Of a stretch of DNA of 8,730 bases, positions 1-8,730 are shown in pieces. A model generated the notes under the pieces. It ran no database searches. It was not told the DNA's origin and worked only from the letters and a program-made list of their open reading frames with translations. The translations under genes and the position numbers were made by a program. The stretch spans positions 1 to 8,730 of the forward strand of contig JAKSDL010000747.1 in assembly GCA_022360105.1 (NCBI GenBank), given 5' to 3'. How positions within the stretch are numbered: the stretch's first letter is position 1; the number at the start of each line of letters is the position of its first letter. This DNA comes from Pseudomonadota bacterium. GTDB lineage: Bacteria > SAR324 > XYD2-FULL-50-16 > JAHJRI01.

Positions 1-133
1 ACCTCATTAATAGCTCTCATTTTTAGTGAATAATATCGCAAAATGAAAAAATAGTAGTTATTAGGAGATAAGTTTGTAAATTGGCACCAGTTTCAAACGT
101 CTACAATTGTTTTGTGCGTTGATGATCAGTAAT

Positions 134-228
134 AAAGATTAGATAGCTATTAAGCGATAATATCTGGATCTGTTTTGATTTCTAAAAATTGCTCATAATT
201 AATTAAACTAAAATCAAAAGATTAGATA
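134..228. repeat. 12-base direct repeat AAAGATTAGATA (two copies)
   Basis: The word AAAGATTAGATA occurs at 134-145 and again at 217-228, with starts 83 bases apart. It might be a repeated protein-binding site upstream of the operon. In DNA this AT-rich a chance repeat of this length is quite possible, so the call is weak. Confidence 0.2.
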
Positions 229-311
229 AAAAACTTATCAAAAAGGACTGGCTGTAACTAGGAAAGATTTACCAGTAATAAATTCAGGAAAAAAGAAGAA
301 AACAGGATGTC

Positions 312-339
312 TTGAATATAAATTCAATTGATTTATTAT
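312..339 (+). promoter_or_regulatory. possible sigma70-type promoter
   Basis: TTGAAT (312-317) and TATTAT (334-339) are separated by 16 bases, close to the -35/-10 consensus pair TTGACA/TATAAT. It would give a leader of roughly 185 bases before the first gene, which would include both inverted repeats described below. The region is so AT-rich that promoter-like pairs arise easily, and a Bacteroidota-type host would use a different consensus. Confidence 0.25.
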
Positions 340-435
340 AAAAAAAGGTTTTATAAGCAAAAAATAAGCATATAAAAATAAAATCACCAATTGATAATAA
401 TCTAATATTTAAAAATAACGATTAAAAACACTTTT

Positions 436-447
436 ATTGTGAACAAT
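436..447. promoter_or_regulatory. palindrome ATTGT-GA-ACAAT, possible operator
   Basis: A perfect 5-base inverted repeat with a 2-base centre (436-440 and 443-447), 85 bases upstream of the first start codon. Its size and symmetry would suit a dimeric helix-turn-helix regulator (inference). No regulator gene is in the window, and short palindromes occur by chance in AT-rich DNA. Confidence 0.25.
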
Positions 448-461
448 CAGCAGCTTATAAC

Positions 462-503
462 CCGTCTCCGTGTGTAACACACTTACAACCTAATCAGAGA
501 CGG
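462..503. promoter_or_regulatory. nested inverted repeat in the leader of the first gene
   Basis: CCGTCTC (462-468) is the exact reverse complement of GAGACGG (497-503). If one C is bulged, the stem extends outward by two A-T pairs. Between the arms lies a second perfect inverted repeat, GTGTG-TAA-CACAC (470-482). This is the most GC-rich stretch of the upstream region and ends 28 bases before the first ATG. It could fold in the mRNA leader or be a regulator-binding site. No T-run follows directly, so it is not a classical intrinsic terminator. Confidence 0.35.
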
Positions 504-521
504 TTAAGACGCAGAACAAGT

Positions 522-528
522 AAGAGGG
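522..528 (+). promoter_or_regulatory. ribosome binding site of the dehydrogenase gene
   Basis: AAGAGGG lies 4 bases before the ATG at 532 and resembles a Shine-Dalgarno sequence. The spacing is short but acceptable. It supports 532 as the start, which also gives the usual N-terminal beginning of the acyl-CoA dehydrogenase fold. Confidence 0.55.
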
Positions 529-531
529 ATA

Positions 532-1677
532 ATGGAATTCGGATGGACAAAAGAACAACGGGATCTTAGGAAAGGTGCAATCAGTTTTGCCAAGCAGGAA
601 AACCCGGAAAATATAGAGGAATTGGATAGGGAAAGCACATTTTTGCATGAACGGTGGCGAACGTATGCCGAATTTGGCGCACAAGGGATTACAGCCCCCG
701 AATCACTGGGAGGGCAGGAACTGGATTTTTTGTCTTGTGTTGCAGTGATGGAAGGACTGGGTTACGGAGCGAAAGACTCAGGACTTCTCTTTTCAATCAA
801 TGCACATATCTGGAGTTTTGTTGAGCCGCTCGTTACGTTTGGGTCGGAAGAACAGAAAACCAAGTATTTTCCCGGGGCTTGTGACGGTTCGACCATAGGT
901 GTGCATGCAATGACGGAACCCGGCTCAGGATCAGATGCACTGAATTTAACGACTACAGCCGAATTGGTTGGGGACTATTATGTGATTAACGGCAGTAAAA
1001 CCTTTATTACCAATGGAGAGATAGCCGATGCCGTGCTGGTATTTGTTAAAACGAAAAACAGTGATGCTGAAAATGATAAGATCAGCGCCATTATTGTGGA
1101 GAGGGGAACACCCGGTTTTACCGTATCAAAAAACATCACCAAGATGGGCTTAAGAACATCCCCTTTTAACGAGCTGTTTTTTGAACAATGTCAGGTCCCC
1201 AGGGAAAATCTTGTTGGCGAAGAAGGAATGGGGGAGATGATTTTTAATCATGCCATGGATGGGGAACGGGCCTTTATTCTGGCCACTCAAATCGGGTTGA
1301 TGGAAAAGCAGCTGGAAGACTGTACGGATTATGCCAGAAAACGCAAACAATTCGGGAAGTCAATAAGCGAATTCCAATCTGTTTCCAACATGCTTGCTGA
1401 AATGAAGGTTAACCTGGAAGCTGCAAGAATGCTGGTTTACAAAGTAGGGTGGCTGAAATCAAAAGGACGGAATGCTTACCAGGATTCTTCCATTGCCAAA
1501 CTATTTGTCAGTGAGTGCAGTGTAAAGAACAGCATGTTCGCTATGAAGATTCATGGCGGGTACGGCTACACCTGTGATTACAAGTATGAACGACAATTAA
1601 GGGATTCTATGGGAGGCCTGTTTTATTCAGGTACATCCGAGATTATGAAAAACATCATCGCTGAACTGATGGAATAG
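532..1677 (+). CDS. acyl-CoA dehydrogenase family flavoenzyme, probable prolyl-carrier-protein dehydrogenase (PltE/PigA-like)
   Basis: A full-length 381-residue FAD enzyme of the acyl-CoA dehydrogenase fold. Visible family signatures are MTEPGSGSD (127-135) and YVINGSKTFITNG (150-162) in the flavin-binding middle domain, RKQFGK (271-276), and IHGGYGY (340-346) with YSGTSEIMKNIIA (365-377) in the C-terminal helical domain. The Glu that acts as base in medium- and short-chain enzymes (YEGTSE) is Ser366 here, while Glu245 in DGERAF aligns with the helix-G Glu of isovaleryl-CoA dehydrogenase and the prolyl-PCP oxidases. Known PltE, RedW and PigA turn prolyl-S-PCP into pyrrole-2-carboxyl-S-PCP; AnaB stops at dehydroproline. 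The proline-type adenylation gene next door, 77 bases downstream, favours this role over fatty-acid oxidation. It is the first gene of the apparent operon. The fold is certain; the substrate is inferred and could be another aminoacyl or acyl thioester. Confidence 0.9.
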   Translation: MEFGWTKEQRDLRKGAISFAKQENPENIEELDRESTFLHERWRTYAEFGAQGITAPESLGGQELDFLSCVAVMEGLGYGAKDSGLLFSINAHIWSFVEPLVTFGSEEQKTKYFPGACDGSTIGVHAMTEPGSGSDALNLTTTAELVGDYYVINGSKTFITNGEIADAVLVFVKTKNSDAENDKISAIIVERGTPGFTVSKNITKMGLRTSPFNELFFEQCQVPRENLVGEEGMGEMIFNHAMDGERAFILATQIGLMEKQLEDCTDYARKRKQFGKSISEFQSVSNMLAEMKVNLEAARMLVYKVGWLKSKGRNAYQDSSIAKLFVSECSVKNSMFAMKIHGGYGYTCDYKYERQLRDSMGGLFYSGTSEIMKNIIAELME

Positions 1678-1754
1678 AAACAATTTCGTTTTAAAGCAAG
1701 TTAAAGATCCAACCATTTCGAATTTTAAGGGCAAAAATCAAGGGAGGGGGCACC
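1678..1754 (+). promoter_or_regulatory. intergenic spacer with strong Shine-Dalgarno
   Basis: This short spacer holds no hairpin followed by a T-run, so I see no terminator between the first two genes and treat them as co-transcribed. AGGGAGGGGG at 1741-1750 is an unusually strong ribosome binding site; its GGAGG core (1743-1747) is 7 bases from the ATG at 1755. This fixes the start of the adenylation gene and suggests it is well translated. Confidence 0.65.
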
Positions 1755-3344
1755 ATGTTTTTGCAAGACTATCTTTCTGTTTCTGCTGCTAAATACAGTG
1801 ATCGTGTTGCCATAAGACTATTAGATGAAGAGATAACCTACCGCGAGCTGGATGAAAGGTCTTCTCAACTGGCTAATTTTTTTAACCAGCATGGATTTGG
1901 ACCCGGCTCCAATGTCGGATTGTATCTCACCAAATCGCCTGCTGCTGTCATTGCTATTTTCGGAATTCTTAAAGCGGGTGCAACCTATGTTCCCCTGGAT
2001 ACTGAAGCGCCAATTGAGCGTGTCGCTTATATCTGCTCCAACTGCGATATTCAAGCCATAGTGGTCGATGATGGCGGCCTTAAGCATATCAACAATGCTG
2101 CGAAACAATTTCCTGTCTCCCAGGTGATTGTTTCGATCTCTGCAGATGTGCCCGATACGCTCTTATACCCTGATCAGTGGCGCATATTCGATAGGTTAGA
2201 CATCGACCAGTCGGAAAAGGAATTATTATGTAAGCCGGAAATTTCCAGGGATAGCCTGGCATACCTCTTATATACCTCCGGATCTACGGGCAAGCCTAAG
2301 GGAGTCATGCTCTCACATCTCAATGCCATGGTATTTGTTGATTGGGCTATGGAGCTATTGCAAACCAACCAGCACGATGTGTTTTCCAGTCACGCGCCTT
2401 TTCATTTTGATCTTTCCATTTTGGATATTTTTCTAGCTGTTAAATCGGGAGCAACCTTGTGTCTGATTCCACCGGGTATATCTTACTTTGCCGATGCCAT
2501 GCTGCGGTTCATTGAAGAAAACGGTATCACTGTCTGGTATTCGGTGCCCAATGCCATCATTCAATGGCTGCCATACAGGGAAGAACTTTCGGATAAGTTG
2601 TCATCTCTCAGAACATTGATCTATGCAGGTGAGGTATTTCCCTTTGGATTCATAAACGACCTGGCTCCTCAACTTTCTGAAAAAACTGTCTATAACCTGT
2701 ACGGACCAACCGAAACCAACGTCATTACCTATTTCAAACTGAATCTGGATCGATCCAATCCACTCACAGAAGAAGTACCAATCGGTGAACCCTGCTCCTA
2801 TGCCGAAATTTATATTGTTGATGAAAACAATCAACCTGTAAAATCCGGGGAAATCGGGGAGCTTATCGTCAAGGGTGATAGTTTGATGGCCGGCTATTGG
2901 GATAATCCTGAAAAAACATCCGCCGCTATTCAAAGCGTTAACATCAACAATCAGCAAAGCGATTTCTATTTCACTGGCGACATGGTTTACCTGAATGACG
3001 ATCAGCAAATCATCTATGTGAACCGGCGGGATAACATGGTGAAAACCAGGGGCTTTCGTGTGGAGCTGGGTGAGATTGAGAGTGTCCTGCACCAGCATGA
3101 ATTGATCCATCAGTCCGCCGTGGTTGCTATACCGGATGAAGTGATCGGGAACAAACTGATCGCATTTTATGTAACCGTGGATAATCGTGAAATAGACAAT
3201 GAAGATATAGTGGAGTTCTGTGCGGACAACCTGCCGACTTACATGTTGCCTGCAAAAATCATCCAAATGAAAAGTCTTCCCCGGAACACAAGAGGGAAGA
3301 TCGATAGAGAACGCTTAAAAAGTACACAGATTAAAAACCAATGA
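1755..3344 (+). CDS. stand-alone adenylation enzyme, probable L-proline:carrier protein ligase (PltF/RedM-like)
   Basis: A complete 529-residue ANL-superfamily A domain with no fused carrier protein. It should activate an amino acid with ATP and load it on a free PCP. Core motifs are present: A3 LLYTSGSTGKPKGV (171-184), A5 NLYGPTE (314-320), A7 YFTGD (405-409), A8 around RRDNMVKTRGFRVELGEIE (424-442) and the A10 lysine K515 in NTRGK. Asp219 fits binding of the substrate amino group. By motif alignment to PheA, the pocket residues D219, L220, L223, Y262, I289, A291, L315, V323, I324, K515 read DLLYIALVIK, very near the DLLYLALVCK-type code I recall for proline enzymes of pyrrole pathways. Automatic annotation may call it a D-alanine (DltA-like) ligase. 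The stop codon overlaps the next ATG (ATGA), implying translational coupling. The family is certain; proline is likely but not proven. Confidence 0.9.
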   Translation: MFLQDYLSVSAAKYSDRVAIRLLDEEITYRELDERSSQLANFFNQHGFGPGSNVGLYLTKSPAAVIAIFGILKAGATYVPLDTEAPIERVAYICSNCDIQAIVVDDGGLKHINNAAKQFPVSQVIVSISADVPDTLLYPDQWRIFDRLDIDQSEKELLCKPEISRDSLAYLLYTSGSTGKPKGVMLSHLNAMVFVDWAMELLQTNQHDVFSSHAPFHFDLSILDIFLAVKSGATLCLIPPGISYFADAMLRFIEENGITVWYSVPNAIIQWLPYREELSDKLSSLRTLIYAGEVFPFGFINDLAPQLSEKTVYNLYGPTETNVITYFKLNLDRSNPLTEEVPIGEPCSYAEIYIVDENNQPVKSGEIGELIVKGDSLMAGYWDNPEKTSAAIQSVNINNQQSDFYFTGDMVYLNDDQQIIYVNRRDNMVKTRGFRVELGEIESVLHQHELIHQSAVVAIPDEVIGNKLIAFYVTVDNREIDNEDIVEFCADNLPTYMLPAKIIQMKSLPRNTRGKIDRERLKSTQIKNQ

Positions 3345-6300
3345 CACGCGACAAAAGCCAGCAAGATATTGCTATTATCGGATATCACGGGCGGTTCCCA
3401 AAATCTGAAACGGAAGATCTTTTTTGGAAAAATCTTTCCCGGGGTGAAATTTGTACTGAACTCACCCCCGAAACCAGATGGGATGCCGATTTTTTCTCAA
3501 CATACGGGCAGGGAACTTTTAAACATATTAAACCGTGGGGAGGTTTTCTTGAGGGCATCGATCGTTTTGACGCTCTGCTGTTTAAAATTTCTCCCAAAAG
3601 TGCCCGGGCCATTGATCCACAGCAAAGACTTTTCATCGAATCGGCGTGGACGGTTCTTGAACACGCCGGTTATGGGGATTCAAACGATGACAGGAGAAAG
3701 AAAACCGGTCTTTTTGTAGGGTCCATGTGGCAAGACTATGCCTACCAAGTGCATGAGACCTGTTACGTTCGTAACAAAGTGGCAGGAACGCGAACCATGA
3801 AGTTTACCCTGGCAAACCAGGCCTCGCACATCCTGGATCTGTCAGGGCCCAGCCTATCTATCGATAATGCGTGTACCTCTTCACTAATGGCTATTCATCT
3901 GGCTTGCCAAAGCCTGCGGACAGGCGAATGTAACATGGCAATAGCGGGTGGTGTAAATCTGACTCTTCATCCTGATAAATACTTCTACCTGGCCCAGGAA
4001 GAGCTGCTGGCCGAGCAGCAGATAACCGCGTGTTTTGTGCCGGAAGCCAAAGGCTATATTCCCGGCGAAGGTGTGGGTACCTTATTGTTGAAACCCCTGG
4101 TGGCTGCTCTGGATGAAGGTGATACTATTTATGGCGTTATTAAAGCCACCGCCACCAATCACAATGGTGGCGGTATGTTCTTCAAAGTGCCTTCTTCCGG
4201 TGCTCAGGCGGATTTGATGCGGAACGTTTTAGCAAAGGCAGATCTGACTCCGAATCAGCTGAGTCATATTGAAATGTCTGCCTATGGCGCTGAAATTACA
4301 GACCAAACAGAATTGAACAGTCTGTTCAAAGTTTTCAGAAAGCATTGGGATAAGCAGCATGTTTGTTCTTTGGGGTCTTTGAAACCGAATATCGGGCATC
4401 TGGAATCTGCAGCCGGAATATCGCAGGTCATCAAGGTGTTGTTACAATTCAAATATCAAAAAAGAGTCCCACTTCTGTTTGACAGTGGAATCATTGAAGA
4501 ATTTGAGCTTGAAGAGAGCCCATTTCAGTTAAATGCCGAGCTGTCGGATTGGGAAACAGGTGGACATCCCAGGTACGCAGCCATTAACTCATTCGGCGCC
4601 GGAGGCGCCAACGCCTGCATGATTCTTGAGGAACCGCCGCCCAGGGCTTCAGTACAGGAGCAATCCTCCGAATCTTCCCACCTGATAGTGCTTTCCGCCC
4701 GCGAAACTGAAACCTTGAGAACTTACGCCAATCACTTCAAAAACTTTCTAAAAGAATCCACTGCAACACCAGCATTAAAAGATATTGCCTATACGTTGCA
4801 GACCGGTCGCACACCCATGCAGGAGCGATTAGCCGTGATTGCAGAGGACAAATCGGAAGTGATAAAGGCTTTGGAGAACTACCTGAGTGAAAAAGATACC
4901 GCCACCGGGTGGTTCAGAGGTACTGTAGACGAAGACAGGCAAATTGCTTCACCGGAAGAGCTTGAAAAGTCGTCGCTGGAGGAATTGTCCAAAACCTGGG
5001 TTGAGAAAGACATCGACTGGCACGCTTTGAACCGGGAGGGTCATAGTAACAAAGTAGCATTACCCACCTATCCTTTTTTGCACGATCGGGTTTACTGGAT
5101 TGACCACGAAGGTGGTTCCCGGGAAAAAGAAACTCGGTTAAGCCTTTCCAACACCGAAGAGGCGGTCACCGATCCTTCTTCCAAATCGCACATTATCAAC
5201 TTCTTAAAAGGACTCATCACCAGGGAGATCAGCCTGCAAGCTGAGTTGATCGACGAAAACAAAAACCTGGCGGATTACGGTCTTGATTCTGTAGTGTTTC
5301 GCAAATTACTGGTCTCGTTAAAGGAACATTTCGATTCTCTTTCGCCTTCGCTGTTTTACAAGTATAAAACAATTCGTGAATTAGCTGATTTTTTGCTTTT
5401 CCATCATCCGGCAACAATTGACCGGCTATTGGATCTCGATATCACCGAAACCAACCTTCCGACTCGGCAGATTGCTTCTCCGCAATCGGATATTCCCCGG
5501 AATAAGCGAGCTCTTTATCATTCAGGGTTGCCTGCCAATGATGGTATATCCAGGGAAGATCTGGCCATTATCGGTGTCAGTGGTCGTTATCCAAAATCAG
5601 CCTCAATTGGTCAGTTCTGGAAAAACCTCAAGGAAAACAAGGATTTTATCACAAGTTTTCCACCAGAGCGCCTGTTTGATGGAGAACAGACCGAGTCTTG
5701 CCGGGGATCTTTTATTGATGATGTGGATAAATTCGATCCGCTGTTTTTTGAGATTTCTCCGAAAGATGCAGTGGCTATTGATCCGCAGGAACGCTTGTTC
5801 TTGCAAACAGCCTGGGAAGTGATTGAAGATGCCGGATACAACATCGAGGAATTCCAAGCCAAGGATGGTGATATTCAGGGCCGGGTGGGGGTTTTCCTGG
5901 GCACCATGTGGAGCGACTACCAGCGCTGGGGACTTACACCATCCTCGTATTGGAGCATCCCCAATCGGGTATCCTATTTCCTGAATCTAAAAGGTCCAAG
6001 TCTGGCCGTAGATTCAGCCTGCTCGTCTTCCCTAACGGCAATCTACCTGGCCTGCGAGAGTATTCGAAGAGGAGAATCCAAACTGGCGATTGCAGGGGGA
6101 ATCAATTTAACCCTGCATCCGGATAAATTCCATTACTTGTCCGAGAAAGGACTGGCCGCAGATGGGGACGAAATCAAGGTGTTTACAGACGAAGGCAAGG
6201 GATATTTGCCGGGAGAGGGTGTTGGAGCAATTTTACTCAAGCCGCTTAAAGACGCAGTAAAAGACGGGGATCATATCCATGCAGTGGTGAAAGGGATCGC

Positions 6301-8730
6301 AATCAACCATGGTGGCAAGTCCAACGGCTTTATGGCACCAAATCCCGATGCCCAGGCAGAGGTGATAGCGGCTGCTTTTAGGAACGCCAATGTTTCACCG
6401 GAGTCCGTTTCCTACATCGATGTGAACGCGGTAGGTTCGGCAACGGGTGATGCGATTGAATTAGAAACCTTATCTGCTGTTTTTTCGGAAACAACCCCGA
6501 ACAAACGTTTTTGTGCTTTAGGTTCCTTAAAATCCGGTCTCGGTCATCTGGAAGCTGCATCCGGTATTTCACAGGTAACAAAAGTGTTGCTGCAATTCAA
6601 ACATCAGATGCTCCTGCCTGCGCTAAAAAACGGCATTGATGCTTTTGATCAAAACCTGGAGAATTCACCCTTCTGCGCCTCAAAGGTTCTTGCACCCTGG
6701 AACCCAGGGGAAGGCCAGTTACCGCGCAGGGCTGCCATCAGCTCTTTTGGTGCCGGTGGCTCCAATGCTCACCTTATTCTGGAGGAATACCGGCACTCAG
6801 AACAGACCTTCCGGGAAAAGCAGGCAACAACCCATTTGTTTGTTTTTTCAGCTCGCACCAAACAGCAATTGGTGCATACAGTCAGCAACTTCAAAGAATT
6901 TATCGCAGCAAACTCCGATACCAATCTCAATGAAGTGGCTTTTACTCTTCAAGCTGGCAGAAAGGCCATGAGCGAAAGGGTCGCTATTGTTGCCGCCTCT
7001 CATTCAGAACTACTGGCATGTTGCGATGCTTACATCAATCGGAATAACCACTGCACGCTCTCCAACACCTATGAAGGTTCGGCATTGAATTCTGCGGGGG
7101 ATCAAACAAACCAAGTCTCAAGCGAATCTGAAAATGAAGCCCTGGAATCACTCATCAAGGTTCATGCATGGGAAAAACTAGCTGCAGCCTGGGTGCAAGG
7201 TGCATCGGTCCCATGGAAAAAGACCTACAAAGATGATCTTCCCCGGCGTGTTTCTCTTCCTACGTATCCTTTCGAGAAAAAGTCGTACTGGCCCGAACAG
7301 CCGGCTTCCTCTCAAAAGACTTTGGCCGTGAATCAGACCAGGTTTGGGGGATTAAAAGAACTCACGCCACAGGCTTATCTGACCAGTCGCATAGCCGTGT
7401 TTTTGGGAATTGATTCTGAAGAACTGCAGGAAGAAAAACCCCTGTTGGAATACGGTTTGGATTCCATCAATGCCACCAAACTCAAGTACGAGTTGGAAAA
7501 GGAATTGAAACATGACATTCCTTTGAGTTTGCTTGGAAAGTCCAGACACCTCAAAGAGATGGTGCAGCAACTGGAGACCAACGAGTCGCTTTCAGCAGTC
7601 AAGCAACAAATAGAGGATTTTCTGGCTGGTACCGATGCTGATATAACGGAAAACCCTGACGATACTGCTGAATCAAATAAAAACAATGATAAATTTGCAC
7701 CGTTTCCCCTTACCGACATCCAGGAATCTTTTTTAAGCGGTAAATTACTTGGAAACAAATCGGACTATGTGGGCTGCCACATCTATCTGGAACTGGAAGT
7801 GGATCAGCTGGATATCTCCAGGCTTCAAGCATCCTGGCAAGTACTGGTTGAGTATCATGATATCTTGCATACAAGGGTTTCCGAAGATGGATACCAACAA
7901 TTGCTAGAAGAGATACCTGAGCTGGAAATCGAACTCCACCATCTGCAAGACTTCGAGGCAAATGACACGGAAAAACATTTGGCATCTCTTCGTTCCCAGA
8001 TGTCTCACCAGGTTTATGAGCCTGGTCGATGGCCTCTCTTTGAAATACAGGTTACCCAGCTATCCAAAAAGAAAAGTATTATCCATTTCAGCATTGATGA
8101 GTGGGTTGTTGATGCAGCCAGTTTGTATCTGTTGCTCAGTCAGTGGTTTCAACTTTATTCCAAAAACATCGATACGTTGCCAACCCTTGGTTTCAGTTTC
8201 AGGGAATATGTGTTGGCCGCTAAACAGCGCGAACGGGGGCAACAGTTTGAAAACAACCTGTCTTATTGGACAAACAAGTTAAAAAACTTACCTGCCCAAC
8301 CCGAACTCAAGTGGCAGGAGAATCCTGTGTTGAAACCGGGAAATGTCTGCTTTGAGCGCACACGGTATCATTACACCCTGCCTTCCCGGAAACGATCGGC
8401 ATTGGTTGAGCAGGCCAGTCGCTTGAATATCAGCCTGACAACACTGATCCTAAGCCTGTTTTCAGAAACTCTGTACGCCAACAGTGCCGAGCGCGTTGTA
8501 TTCCCTATCGTGTTGACCGTGTATAATCGTTTGCCCGTGCATCCCCAGGTCGACATGGTGTTAGGCCCGTTTATCTCTACCAATATCTTCCTGGCAGAGC
8601 CTTACTCCGAGTTATCCCTGGGGGAACGGGCTAAGCAATATCAATCCCAGCTTTGGGAAGATCTGGACCATCAATCAGTTAGCGGAATCAGGGCACTAAG
8701 GGAGTTGAAAAAGCAAAAAAAGATTTCCAA
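3341..8730 (+). CDS. hybrid trans-AT polyketide synthase / NRPS, KS0-ACP-KS0-ACP-Cy... (partial, 3' end outside window)
   Basis: One uninterrupted frame of 1796 codons plus two bases, open at the right edge. Order by residue: KS1 9-431, post-KS linker 432-587, ACP1 about 612-690, KS2 739-1149, post-KS linker 1150-1317, ACP2 about 1342-1411, an acidic Asn-rich linker to about 1451, and a Cy domain from 1452 to the edge. No acyltransferase, KR, DH or MT domain is fused, as in trans-AT systems. Both KS domains keep the active-site Cys (178, 894) but lack the HGTGT histidine (Ser313, Asn1029), so neither should extend a chain. Both ACPs keep the phosphopantetheine Ser (650, 1375). The start at 3341 uses the ATGA overlap, has no Shine-Dalgarno of its own, and leaves only eight residues before KS1. 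Probable role: relay a carrier-bound starter to the Cy domain for azoline formation. Family assignment is secure; the product is unknown. Confidence 0.93.
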   Translation, partial: MTRDKSQQDIAIIGYHGRFPKSETEDLFWKNLSRGEICTELTPETRWDADFFSTYGQGTFKHIKPWGGFLEGIDRFDALLFKISPKSARAIDPQQRLFIESAWTVLEHAGYGDSNDDRRKKTGLFVGSMWQDYAYQVHETCYVRNKVAGTRTMKFTLANQASHILDLSGPSLSIDNACTSSLMAIHLACQSLRTGECNMAIAGGVNLTLHPDKYFYLAQEELLAEQQITACFVPEAKGYIPGEGVGTLLLKPLVAALDEGDTIYGVIKATATNHNGGGMFFKVPSSGAQADLMRNVLAKADLTPNQLSHIEMSAYGAEITDQTELNSLFKVFRKHWDKQHVCSLGSLKPNIGHLESAAGISQVIKVLLQFKYQKRVPLLFDSGIIEEFELEESPFQLNAELSDWETGGHPRYAAINSFGAGGANACMILEEPPPRASVQEQSSESSHLIVLSARETETLRTYANHFKNFLKESTATPALKDIAYTLQTGRTPMQERLAVIAEDKSEVIKALENYLSEKDTATGWFRGTVDEDRQIASPEELEKSSLEELSKTWVEKDIDWHALNREGHSNKVALPTYPFLHDRVYWIDHEGGSREKETRLSLSNTEEAVTDPSSKSHIINFLKGLITREISLQAELIDENKNLADYGLDSVVFRKLLVSLKEHFDSLSPSLFYKYKTIRELADFLLFHHPATIDRLLDLDITETNLPTRQIASPQSDIPRNKRALYHSGLPANDGISREDLAIIGVSGRYPKSASIGQFWKNLKENKDFITSFPPERLFDGEQTESCRGSFIDDVDKFDPLFFEISPKDAVAIDPQERLFLQTAWEVIEDAGYNIEEFQAKDGDIQGRVGVFLGTMWSDYQRWGLTPSSYWSIPNRVSYFLNLKGPSLAVDSACSSSLTAIYLACESIRRGESKLAIAGGINLTLHPDKFHYLSEKGLAADGDEIKVFTDEGKGYLPGEGVGAILLKPLKDAVKDGDHIHAVVKGIAINHGGKSNGFMAPNPDAQAEVIAAAFRNANVSPESVSYIDVNAVGSATGDAIELETLSAVFSETTPNKRFCALGSLKSGLGHLEAASGISQVTKVLLQFKHQMLLPALKNGIDAFDQNLENSPFCASKVLAPWNPGEGQLPRRAAISSFGAGGSNAHLILEEYRHSEQTFREKQATTHLFVFSARTKQQLVHTVSNFKEFIAANSDTNLNEVAFTLQAGRKAMSERVAIVAASHSELLACCDAYINRNNHCTLSNTYEGSALNSAGDQTNQVSSESENEALESLIKVHAWEKLAAAWVQGASVPWKKTYKDDLPRRVSLPTYPFEKKSYWPEQPASSQKTLAVNQTRFGGLKELTPQAYLTSRIAVFLGIDSEELQEEKPLLEYGLDSINATKLKYELEKELKHDIPLSLLGKSRHLKEMVQQLETNESLSAVKQQIEDFLAGTDADITENPDDTAESNKNNDKFAPFPLTDIQESFLSGKLLGNKSDYVGCHIYLELEVDQLDISRLQASWQVLVEYHDILHTRVSEDGYQQLLEEIPELEIELHHLQDFEANDTEKHLASLRSQMSHQVYEPGRWPLFEIQVTQLSKKKSIIHFSIDEWVVDAASLYLLLSQWFQLYSKNIDTLPTLGFSFREYVLAAKQRERGQQFENNLSYWTNKLKNLPAQPELKWQENPVLKPGNVCFERTRYHYTLPSRKRSALVEQASRLNISLTTLILSLFSETLYANSAERVVFPIVLTVYNRLPVHPQVDMVLGPFISTNIFLAEPYSELSLGERAKQYQSQLWEDLDHQSVSGIRALRELKKQKKIS
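3365..4633 (+). other. KS1 domain, non-elongating (KS0), residues 9-431
   Basis: Opens with DIAIIGYHGRFP, has the DPQQRLF motif and an active-site Cys178 in DNACTSS (usual form DTACSSS). Where active ketosynthases read VEAHGTGT, this one reads IEMSAYGA (310-317), so the catalytic His is Ser313 and the motif is largely gone; Asp321 and Glu324 of the following GDPIE region remain. The second His is kept in NIGHLESAAG (His353). The terminal NAHVILEE-type motif reads NACMILEE. Cys178 can still carry an acyl chain, but decarboxylative condensation is not expected. As the first domain of the protein it is the probable entry point for a starter brought by a separate carrier protein. Confidence 0.88.
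4634..5101 (+). other. post-KS linker / trans-AT docking region 1
   Basis: Residues 432-587 hold the flanking subdomain that follows KS domains in trans-AT synthases, including LVLSARETETLR and ending in LPTYPF (574-579) with the RVYW tail. No GHSxG acyltransferase motif is present, and the stretch is far too short for an AT domain. A discrete AT might dock here, although a non-elongating module needs no extender unit. Confidence 0.7.
5174..5410 (+). other. acyl/peptidyl carrier protein domain 1
   Basis: Residues 612-690. YGLDSV (646-651) contains the phosphopantetheine attachment serine, Ser650. It is preceded by an acidic helix-1 region and followed by a typical C-terminal helix with the wording YKTIRELADFLLFHHP. 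It appears competent for carrier function and would take the chain from KS1 and pass it to KS2. Confidence 0.85.
5555..6787 (+). other. KS2 domain, non-elongating (KS0), residues 739-1149
   Basis: Starts DLAIIGVSGRYP, has DPQERLF and a canonical active-site motif DSACSSS with Cys894. The HGTGT motif reads NAVGS (1029-1033), so the catalytic histidine is Asn1029; the following TGDAIE matches the usual LGDPIE. His1069 is kept in LGHLEAASG, and the end has normal NAHLILEE. It is closer to standard trans-AT KS domains than KS1 but should still only transacylate. It sits between two competent carrier domains and immediately before the module feeding Cy. Confidence 0.88.
6788..7291 (+). other. post-KS linker / trans-AT docking region 2
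   Basis: Residues 1150-1317, the second copy of the KS-flanking subdomain, with FVFSARTKQQL near its start and LPTYPF (1306-1311) followed by KKSYW at its end. No acyltransferase active-site motif is present. Confidence 0.7.
7364..7573 (+). other. acyl/peptidyl carrier protein domain 2
   Basis: Residues 1342-1411. The attachment serine is Ser1375 in LEYGLDSI. It is followed by an acidic, Asn/Asp-rich linker (about 1412-1451) that leads to the Cy domain. It is the predicted upstream donor carrier for the heterocyclization step. Confidence 0.85.
7694..8730 (+). other. NRPS heterocyclization (Cy) domain, truncated by the window edge
   Basis: From residue 1452: FAPFPLTDIQESF is the Cy-type entry motif. 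In place of the condensation HHxxxDG motif the domain reads DEWVVD (Asp1586 to Asp1591), the DxxxxD signature of Cy domains. Supporting Cy-like stretches are HDILHTR (1506-1512), SYWTNKLKNLP (1641-1651), NRLPVHPQVD (1729-1738) and LWEDLDHQSVSGIR (1771-1784). Cy domains condense the upstream acyl thioester with Cys, Ser or Thr on the downstream PCP and cyclodehydrate to thiazoline or oxazoline. The C-terminal catalytic Thr/Asp region and the A domain naming the amino acid are beyond the edge. Confidence 0.88.

What the first reader, a model, noticed from the sequence alone, without database searches (positions are those of the whole stretch)
532..8730. Proline-to-pyrrole style starter pair feeding a trans-AT KS0/Cy megasynthase
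A PltE-like dehydrogenase and a PltF-like adenylation enzyme sit directly before, and overlap with, a hybrid synthase whose first domain is a KS with no loading module. From known pyrrole pathways, the pair would make a pyrrole-2-carboxyl (or dehydroprolyl) thioester. The synthase would pass it to a Cy domain, giving a pyrrolyl-thiazoline or -oxazoline. I do not recall a described pathway with this exact order (pyrrole starter, two silent KS modules, Cy), so the product may be new.
Basis: partly seen in the sequence, partly recalled or inferred. Interest (0 to 1): 0.75.

Follow-up and report, generated by a model that had tools for sequence, protein, structure and literature searches.

The report
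Oxidised-proline starter for oxazole polyketide
A little-studied marine bacterium appears to load oxidised proline onto the front of a giant assembly-line enzyme, which probably builds an oxazole ring onto it before making a polyketide; the parts are known, but this combination looks new.

Summary
The window encodes an acyl-CoA-dehydrogenase-like flavoprotein (532-1677), a stand-alone adenylation enzyme (1755-3344) and, overlapping it by 4 bp, the start of an AT-less synthase: KS0-ACP-KS0-ACP-Cy (3341 on). The flavoprotein has the residue pair of prolyl-carrier oxidases (Glu245, and Ser where ordinary acyl-CoA dehydrogenases have Glu). The adenylation pocket reads DLLYIALVIK, PltF's DLLYLALVCK. 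In the nearest held genome, a SAR324 MAG from Porites lutea coral skeleton, the same genes follow a discrete carrier protein and the synthase runs on as Cy-Cy-A(Ser)-PCP-Ox-KS0-ACP-KS0. So the likely head is a pyrrolyl- or pyrrolinyl-oxazole, not a thiazoline. Pyrroline versus pyrrole is undecided: the flavoprotein's clade holds neither AnaB nor Bmp3/PigA. Pyrrole-azoline joining has a precedent (chalkophomycin). What looks new is the trans-AT setting, the silent KSs on both sides of the azole module, and a mosaic: starter genes plus the first two thirds of KS1 are 79.6% identical to the relative, the rest 95.6%. New variant of a known kind.

The parts
532..1677 (+). Prolyl-carrier-protein oxidase type flavoprotein (ACAD fold), 381 aa; Glu245
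   Evidence: AnaB 373 bits, Bmp3 277; Glu at the AnaB-E244 column, Ser at the column that is Glu in ordinary dehydrogenases
1755..3344 (+). Stand-alone adenylation enzyme, predicted L-proline, pocket DLLYIALVIK
   Evidence: over the pocket region the best solved match is 6o6e, L-proline--[L-prolyl-carrier protein] ligase (122.7 bits; next 86.9)
3341..8730 (+). Trans-AT PKS/NRPS, 5' part, runs off the window
   Evidence: 4-bp ATGA overlap with the adenylation gene
3359..4633 (+). KS1, non-elongating (His to Ser; Cys178 and distal His kept)
5204..5395 (+). ACP1 (GLDSV)
5555..6805 (+). KS2, non-elongating (His to Asn)
7376..7522 (+). ACP2 (GLDSI)
7685..8730 (+). Heterocyclisation domain Cy1 (DEWVVDAAS at about 8096-8122), incomplete
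4226..4226 (.). Identity changepoint against the SAR324 relative, inside KS1
   Evidence: 79.6% before, 95.6% after, log-likelihood gain 256

Best explanation
The window is the loading end of a trans-AT PKS/NRPS cluster. The adenylation enzyme makes prolyl-AMP and loads a discrete carrier protein (seen in the relative, outside this window). The flavoprotein removes the C2 proton with Glu245, passes hydride to FAD and oxidises the ring to pyrroline or pyrrole while on the carrier. KS1 and KS2 lack the decarboxylation His, so they only relay the acyl group: carrier to KS1, ACP1, KS2, ACP2. The Cy domains then join it to a Ser-PCP and cyclise; the Ox domain gives an oxazole; two more silent KSs pass it on before extension. 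Shown by sequence: domains, key residues, pocket code, gene order and, in the relative, carrier and downstream domains. Inferred: substrate, oxidation state, order of transfers, and that the window's own genome has the same carrier and downstream modules.
For: AnaB, Bmp3 and PigA have the same residue pair as the window, two ordinary ACADs the opposite pair. Pocket DLLYIALVIK against PltF DLLYLALVCK and PigI DLFYIAWVCK. 9 of the 22 best flavoprotein hits (P0121-P0142) have the same longest-contig length as an adenylation enzyme among the 120 listed, so the pair seems to travel together. Discrete carrier upstream in the relative. KS0 residues; Cy; A-PCP-Ox continuation with a Ser code DVWHFSLVDK; the last 45 residues of the window's synthase match contig C416 at 98%. 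dN well below dS in all stretches compared with the relative.
Against: NCBIfam cut-offs for PigA (345.6 of 500 bits) and RedW (322.6 of 650) are not reached, and an acryloyl-CoA reductase model scores 327.6, above RedW. The isovaleryl-CoA dehydrogenase control also has Glu at the 244 column. Over its full length the adenylation enzyme matches multi-domain gramicidin synthase chains (442.6 bits summed over stretches) and a peptide synthetase (382.8) above the prolyl ligase 6o6e (281.2). Two pocket positions differ from PltF. The carrier is not in the window; the window's 1-522 has no clear match to the relative's upstream DNA; a database search with the carrier found only its own cluster of three sequences, and it meets no NCBIfam carrier cut-off (best 48.7 of 130). 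Cy2 of the relative lacks the second Asp of the Cy motif.
Confidence: 0.7

Rival explanations
1. A narrower form of the best explanation: the flavoprotein performs only the two-electron step, as AnaB does, so the starter is a pyrroline-5-carboxyl thioester and the product a pyrrolinyl-oxazole.
For: AnaB is by far the best solved match, 373 against 277 bits for Bmp3 and 241 for PigA. AnaB's product is given as (S)-pyrroline-5-carboxyl-AnaD in PMC3252866 (passages).
Against: On the tree AnaB sits with a Microvirga protein (0.903), not in the window's clade, and the nodes between the window's clade, AnaB and PigA/Bmp3 have supports from 0.17 to 0.90. The fetched members of the clade replace the Trp before the catalytic Glu (EWER in AnaB, DWER in Bmp3) by Gly, Glu or Lys.
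Confidence: 0.4
2. The pair acts on a different cyclic or small amino acid (for example pipecolate or a substituted proline), so the starter is not derived from proline itself.
For: Position 331 is Ile in the window, not Cys as in PltF and PigI; 17 of the 18 close relatives fetched (P0003-P0033) also have Ile and one has Val.
Against: 8 of 10 pocket letters equal PltF and the other two are hydrophobic; two of the nine more distant prolyl-type enzymes fetched also have Ile there (P0041, P0076).
Confidence: 0.15
3. The flavoprotein and adenylation enzyme serve another assembly line and only happen to neighbour this synthase.
For: The relative's genome holds many other PKS stretches (75 matches).
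Against: 4-bp start/stop overlap in the window and 1-bp overlap in the relative; same order in both; starter genes and the 5' part of KS1 share one divergence level.
Confidence: 0.06

Closest known systems
Anatoxin-a starter system AnaB/AnaC/AnaD (PMC3252866, passages)
   Same: Discrete carrier, stand-alone adenylation enzyme and prolyl-carrier dehydrogenase feed a modular PKS; same Glu
   Different: No Cy or oxazole module in the passages read; 45.9% identity of the oxidases, different clade
Chalkophomycin chmGHIJ plus ChmL (PMC11085572, PMC10849742, passages)
   Same: Proline cassette with discrete carrier, then a Cy domain; pyrrole joined to an oxazoline
   Different: N-hydroxylated pyrrole, hydrolysed and re-activated onto a PCP-Cy-A-PCP NRPS whose A domain is predicted for Cys but proposed to load Ser; one later PKS module with its own AT; no silent KSs in the passages read; actinomycetes
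Pyoluteorin PltE/PltF/PltL and prodigiosin PigA/PigI/PigG
   Same: Pocket code nearly that of PltF; same oxidase residues as PigA
   Different: Downstream synthases differ (recalled); NCBIfam PigA and RedW cut-offs not met; PltE not compared
Leinamycin-type start (LnmQ/LnmP then Cy modules), recalled only
   Same: Discrete adenylation enzyme and carrier feed a trans-AT line with Cy and Ox domains
   Different: D-alanine and Cys/thiazole, no proline oxidase; not tested here

Membership tests
Prolyl-carrier oxidase (AnaB/Bmp3/PigA type) | Glu at AnaB position 244 and no Glu at the position used by ordinary acyl-CoA dehydrogenases | tested here: met
   Glu245 and Ser; controls 4l1f and 5ol2 have Gly and Glu. 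The isovaleryl-CoA dehydrogenase control has Glu and Ala, so the Glu alone is not exclusive
Prolyl-carrier oxidase, PigA or RedW equivalog | Reaches the curated NCBIfam cut-off | tested here: not met
   345.6 of 500 and 322.6 of 650 bits; so not filed as PigA or RedW
Prolyl-carrier oxidase (AnaB/Bmp3/PigA type) | Oxidises carrier-bound proline | not testable with these tools
   Needs an enzyme assay
Stand-alone L-prolyl adenylation enzyme (PltF/PigI type) | Pocket code close to DLLYLALVCK | tested here: met
   DLLYIALVIK, 8 of 10 equal counting the last Lys, which was assumed and not read
Thiotemplated prolyl cassette | Discrete carrier protein in the cluster | tested here: inconclusive
   Present in the relative G001; none in the window, which has only 531 bp upstream
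Trans-AT PKS | No AT domain in the modules, KS followed by a flanking linker | tested here: met
   no AT; RhiE-like and CurL-like linker models match twice each
Trans-AT PKS | Free-standing AT in the cluster | tested here: inconclusive
   AT-like ORFs on other contigs of G001 (C464, C470, judged by start sequence only), not linked to this cluster
Non-elongating KS0 | Active-site Cys kept, HGTGT His lost | tested here: met
   both KSs of the window and KS3, KS4 of the relative
Heterocyclisation (Cy) domain | DxxxxDxxS in place of HHxxxDG | tested here: met
   DEWVVDAAS; best solved matches EpoB, Irp2 and BmdB Cy

The most novel reading that the evidence does not exclude
An unseen class of polyketides capped by a pyrrolyl- or pyrrolinyl-oxazole, made by SAR324 bacteria of reef corals. 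The proline-derived acid is relayed through silent KSs on both sides of an oxazole module, and the whole starter block (oxidase, adenylation enzyme, first two thirds of KS1) is exchanged between lineages by recombination inside KS1, not at the C-terminal KS site or LPTYPF motif described for trans-AT lines.
Probability: 0.35. Interest if true: 0.7.

Novelty: new variant of a known kind. Interest (0 to 1): 0.5.

Why it matters
It joins two well-studied starter logics (thiotemplated proline oxidation and trans-AT assembly lines) in an uncultured phylum from coral skeleton, and predicts a testable head group. The flavoprotein clade it belongs to has hits named from several phyla and includes none of the three characterised oxidases compared here, so one in vitro assay would hint at what the whole clade makes. 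The changepoint inside KS1 suggests a natural fusion point for engineering.

Tried and rejected
Rejected: ordinary fatty-acid dehydrogenase. Many listed hits carry only the generic name acyl-CoA dehydrogenase and score above AnaB's 373 bits. But all 33 that I chose and aligned have the Glu/Ser pair (33 of 120 listed; of 35 fetched I left out P0121, the window's own protein, and P0149), and besides the nine pairs of the top group three more share a contig length with a listed adenylation enzyme (P0155/P0076, P0196/P0081, P0208/P0063). Rejected: thiazoline, because the relative's next adenylation domain reads as Ser.

Led nowhere: carrier-protein search (only its own cluster); the GPTETNVIT codon pattern, 1 of 383 genomes, G001 itself; the adenylation query, 1 of 52 SAR324-phylum genomes at 1e-90, again G001; the adenylation query in genome contigs, 33 loci, of which only the SAR324 one is close (80%), the others 22-29%; viral contigs with the synthase, no confirmed relative; phages with the Cy stretch, no match; plasmids with the synthase, 40 records, 2 covering at least 80% of the query, architecture not examined; Rfam, 0 matches; an inverted repeat before the first gene, z -0.36. 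A tree of adenylation enzymes over the pocket region put P0016 and P0026 nearer the PltF side than the window's other relatives, so I claim no clean adenylation clade. The script for the pocket code failed for nearly all sequences at first and was redone; there 1 of 34 sequences (P0018) gave no code, and its motif was read. antiSMASH, MIBiG and transATor were not available. Paper searches for the combination listed no title that matches; I judged by listings, and this library lacks most subscription journals.

Full report
What is there. Three genes on the + strand: a 381-aa flavoprotein of the acyl-CoA dehydrogenase fold (532-1677), a 529-aa stand-alone adenylation enzyme (1755-3344) and a synthase open to the window end (3341 on, 1796 aa seen). 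The adenylation stop and synthase start overlap as ATGA. Pfam on the synthase gives KS, PP-binding, KS, PP-binding, Condensation, with linker domains and no AT, KR or DH.

The starter pair. Against solved structures the flavoprotein scores 373 bits with 4irn (prolyl-ACP dehydrogenase; AnaB by recall), 277 with 6cxt, then 271 and less with others; 5zw0 (L-prolyl-[peptidyl-carrier protein] dehydrogenase; PigA by recall) scores 241 (60 of 113 shown). 6cxt is Bmp3, a pyrrole-forming prolyl oxidase, by a figure legend in PMC10849742 (passages), which also speaks of a catalytic Glu essential in AnaB and Bmp3. In an alignment of 44 sequences the window has Glu at the column that counts as 244 in AnaB (residue 245 here; that this is the essential Glu is recalled) and Ser where ordinary dehydrogenases have their catalytic Glu. 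All 33 database relatives aligned, three plasmid relatives, AnaB, Bmp3 and PigA share the pair; two ordinary dehydrogenases have Gly and Glu, and an isovaleryl-CoA dehydrogenase Glu and Ala. The adenylation pocket is DLLYIALVIK; 6o6e is DLLYLALVCK and 7thn DLFYIAWVCK (positions placed by motif after GrsA numbering from recall, last Lys assumed). Both chains are named L-proline--[L-prolyl-carrier protein] ligase; that they are PltF and PigI is recalled. Over the pocket region 6o6e is the best solved match, 122.7 bits, next 86.9; over the full length several multi-domain synthetase chains rank above it.

Results against an easy label. NCBIfam's PigA and RedW cut-offs are not met, and an acryloyl-CoA reductase model scores between the two. 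The window's flavoprotein, its SAR324 ortholog and 15 aligned relatives (among P0122-P0142) form one clade with support 1.000 that contains neither AnaB nor PigA/Bmp3; the nodes between these groups have supports of 0.17 to 0.90. Of 18 close adenylation relatives fetched, 17 have Ile and one Val at position 331, where PltF and PigI have Cys. I therefore leave pyrroline versus pyrrole open. Source names among the close hits include Clostridia, Chitinivibrionales, Opitutaceae and Bdellovibrionales MAGs.

The nearest relative. The window's own assembly is not held. G001, the nearest held genome, shares 31% of sampled words; its contig C257 has the same length, 20,392 bases, and the same match as JANQLH010000392.1, MAG SAR324 cluster bacterium PL25a_bin.53, and I take them to be one. 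PL bins are from Porites lutea coral skeleton (PMC9868349, passages; bin.53 itself is not named there, and polyketide occurs 0 times in that text). G001 carries orthologs at 92.7, 79.7 and 92.2% aa identity, the last over 1753 residues. A 78-aa carrier protein (PF00550, 26.7 bits, cut-off 20.8; no NCBIfam carrier cut-off met) lies about 700 bp before its flavoprotein gene on the same strand. The window has only 531 bp there, with no clear match to G001's upstream DNA, so the carrier is inferred for the window.

The synthase. KS1 and KS2 keep Cys and the distal His but have Ser and Asn for the HGTGT His; of 47 KS rows scored (45 from 17 fetched G001 contigs, 2 from the window) 32 have His, 14 another residue and 1 a gap (two partial rows lack the Cys column and one has Glu there). 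The Condensation domain is a Cy domain. The last 45 residues of the window match the end of G001 contig C416 at 98%, whose 3089-aa open frame continues as rest of Cy1, Cy2 (with a damaged motif, DMLIAAGNS), A, PCP, a region with two nitroreductase-type (Ox) stretches, KS (His to Gln), ACP, KS (His to Ser). The A domain reads DVWHFSLVDK, a Ser code by recall. So the predicted head is an oxazole joined to the proline-derived ring, with two silent KSs before and two after it.

Mosaic. Against G001, flavoprotein and adenylation genes have dS 1.38 and 1.05, while linker 1 through Cy have dS 0.06-0.21; KS1 as a whole 0.80. A single changepoint falls at window 4226, codon about 296 of the synthase: 79.6% identity before, 95.6% after, log-likelihood gain 256. 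It lies between the KS1 Cys (178) and the lost His position (313). Passages of PMC11260071 place the common trans-AT recombination site at the KS C-terminus and argue for LPTYPFx5W; this is elsewhere. An assembly chimera is possible, but a de Bruijn join needs a long identical stretch and before the changepoint the longest identical run is 39 bases, so I think the shift is real (inference). dN/dS is about 0.03 for the flavoprotein, 0.12 for the adenylation enzyme, 0.09 for KS1 and 0.15 for KS2, so the silent KSs look constrained.

How it works, most likely. Prolyl-AMP, loading onto the discrete carrier, oxidation by the flavoprotein, then relay through KS1-ACP1-KS2-ACP2 without extension, condensation and cyclisation with Ser, oxidation to oxazole. 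Residues, domains and order are shown; substrate, oxidation state and transfers are inferred.

Comparison. Anatoxin-a uses AnaC, AnaD and AnaB to make (S)-pyrroline-5-carboxyl-AnaD for a PKS (PMC3252866, passages). Chalkophomycin joins an N-hydroxypyrrole to an oxazoline through a Cy domain (PMC11085572 and PMC10849742, passages), but by hydrolysis and re-activation and, in what I read, without silent KSs. The listings show no paper with this combination.

Noticed in passing
window 532-8582 against L013: Synonymous divergence drops roughly ten-fold at about 4226 inside KS1: starter cassette and synthase body have different histories.
   Followed up: partly
window 1-531: AT-rich (27.5% GC) leader without clear match to the relative's upstream DNA; an inverted repeat at 453-512 folds no better than shuffles.
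   Followed up: partly
G001 contigs L013, L014, L049-L067: A coral-skeleton SAR324 MAG with 45 KS rows on 17 fetched contigs, several trans-AT-like lines; by motif search one more Cy-Cy-A-PCP line on C89, followed by a KS with Ala for His. More contigs with KS matches were not fetched.
   Followed up: no
L066 (C358) residues 425-866 of its first ORF: A KS-like region with Glu where the active-site Cys would be.
   Followed up: no
L013:1-54: The contig end carries an exact 54-bp inverted copy of window 8546-8599, probably an assembly artefact.
   Followed up: no
L070:10120-13113: Mycetohabitans rhizoxinica plasmid has a carrier, an adenylation enzyme (two annotated pieces) and a prolyl-type oxidase side by side; no PKS is annotated in the 25 kb shown.
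   Followed up: no
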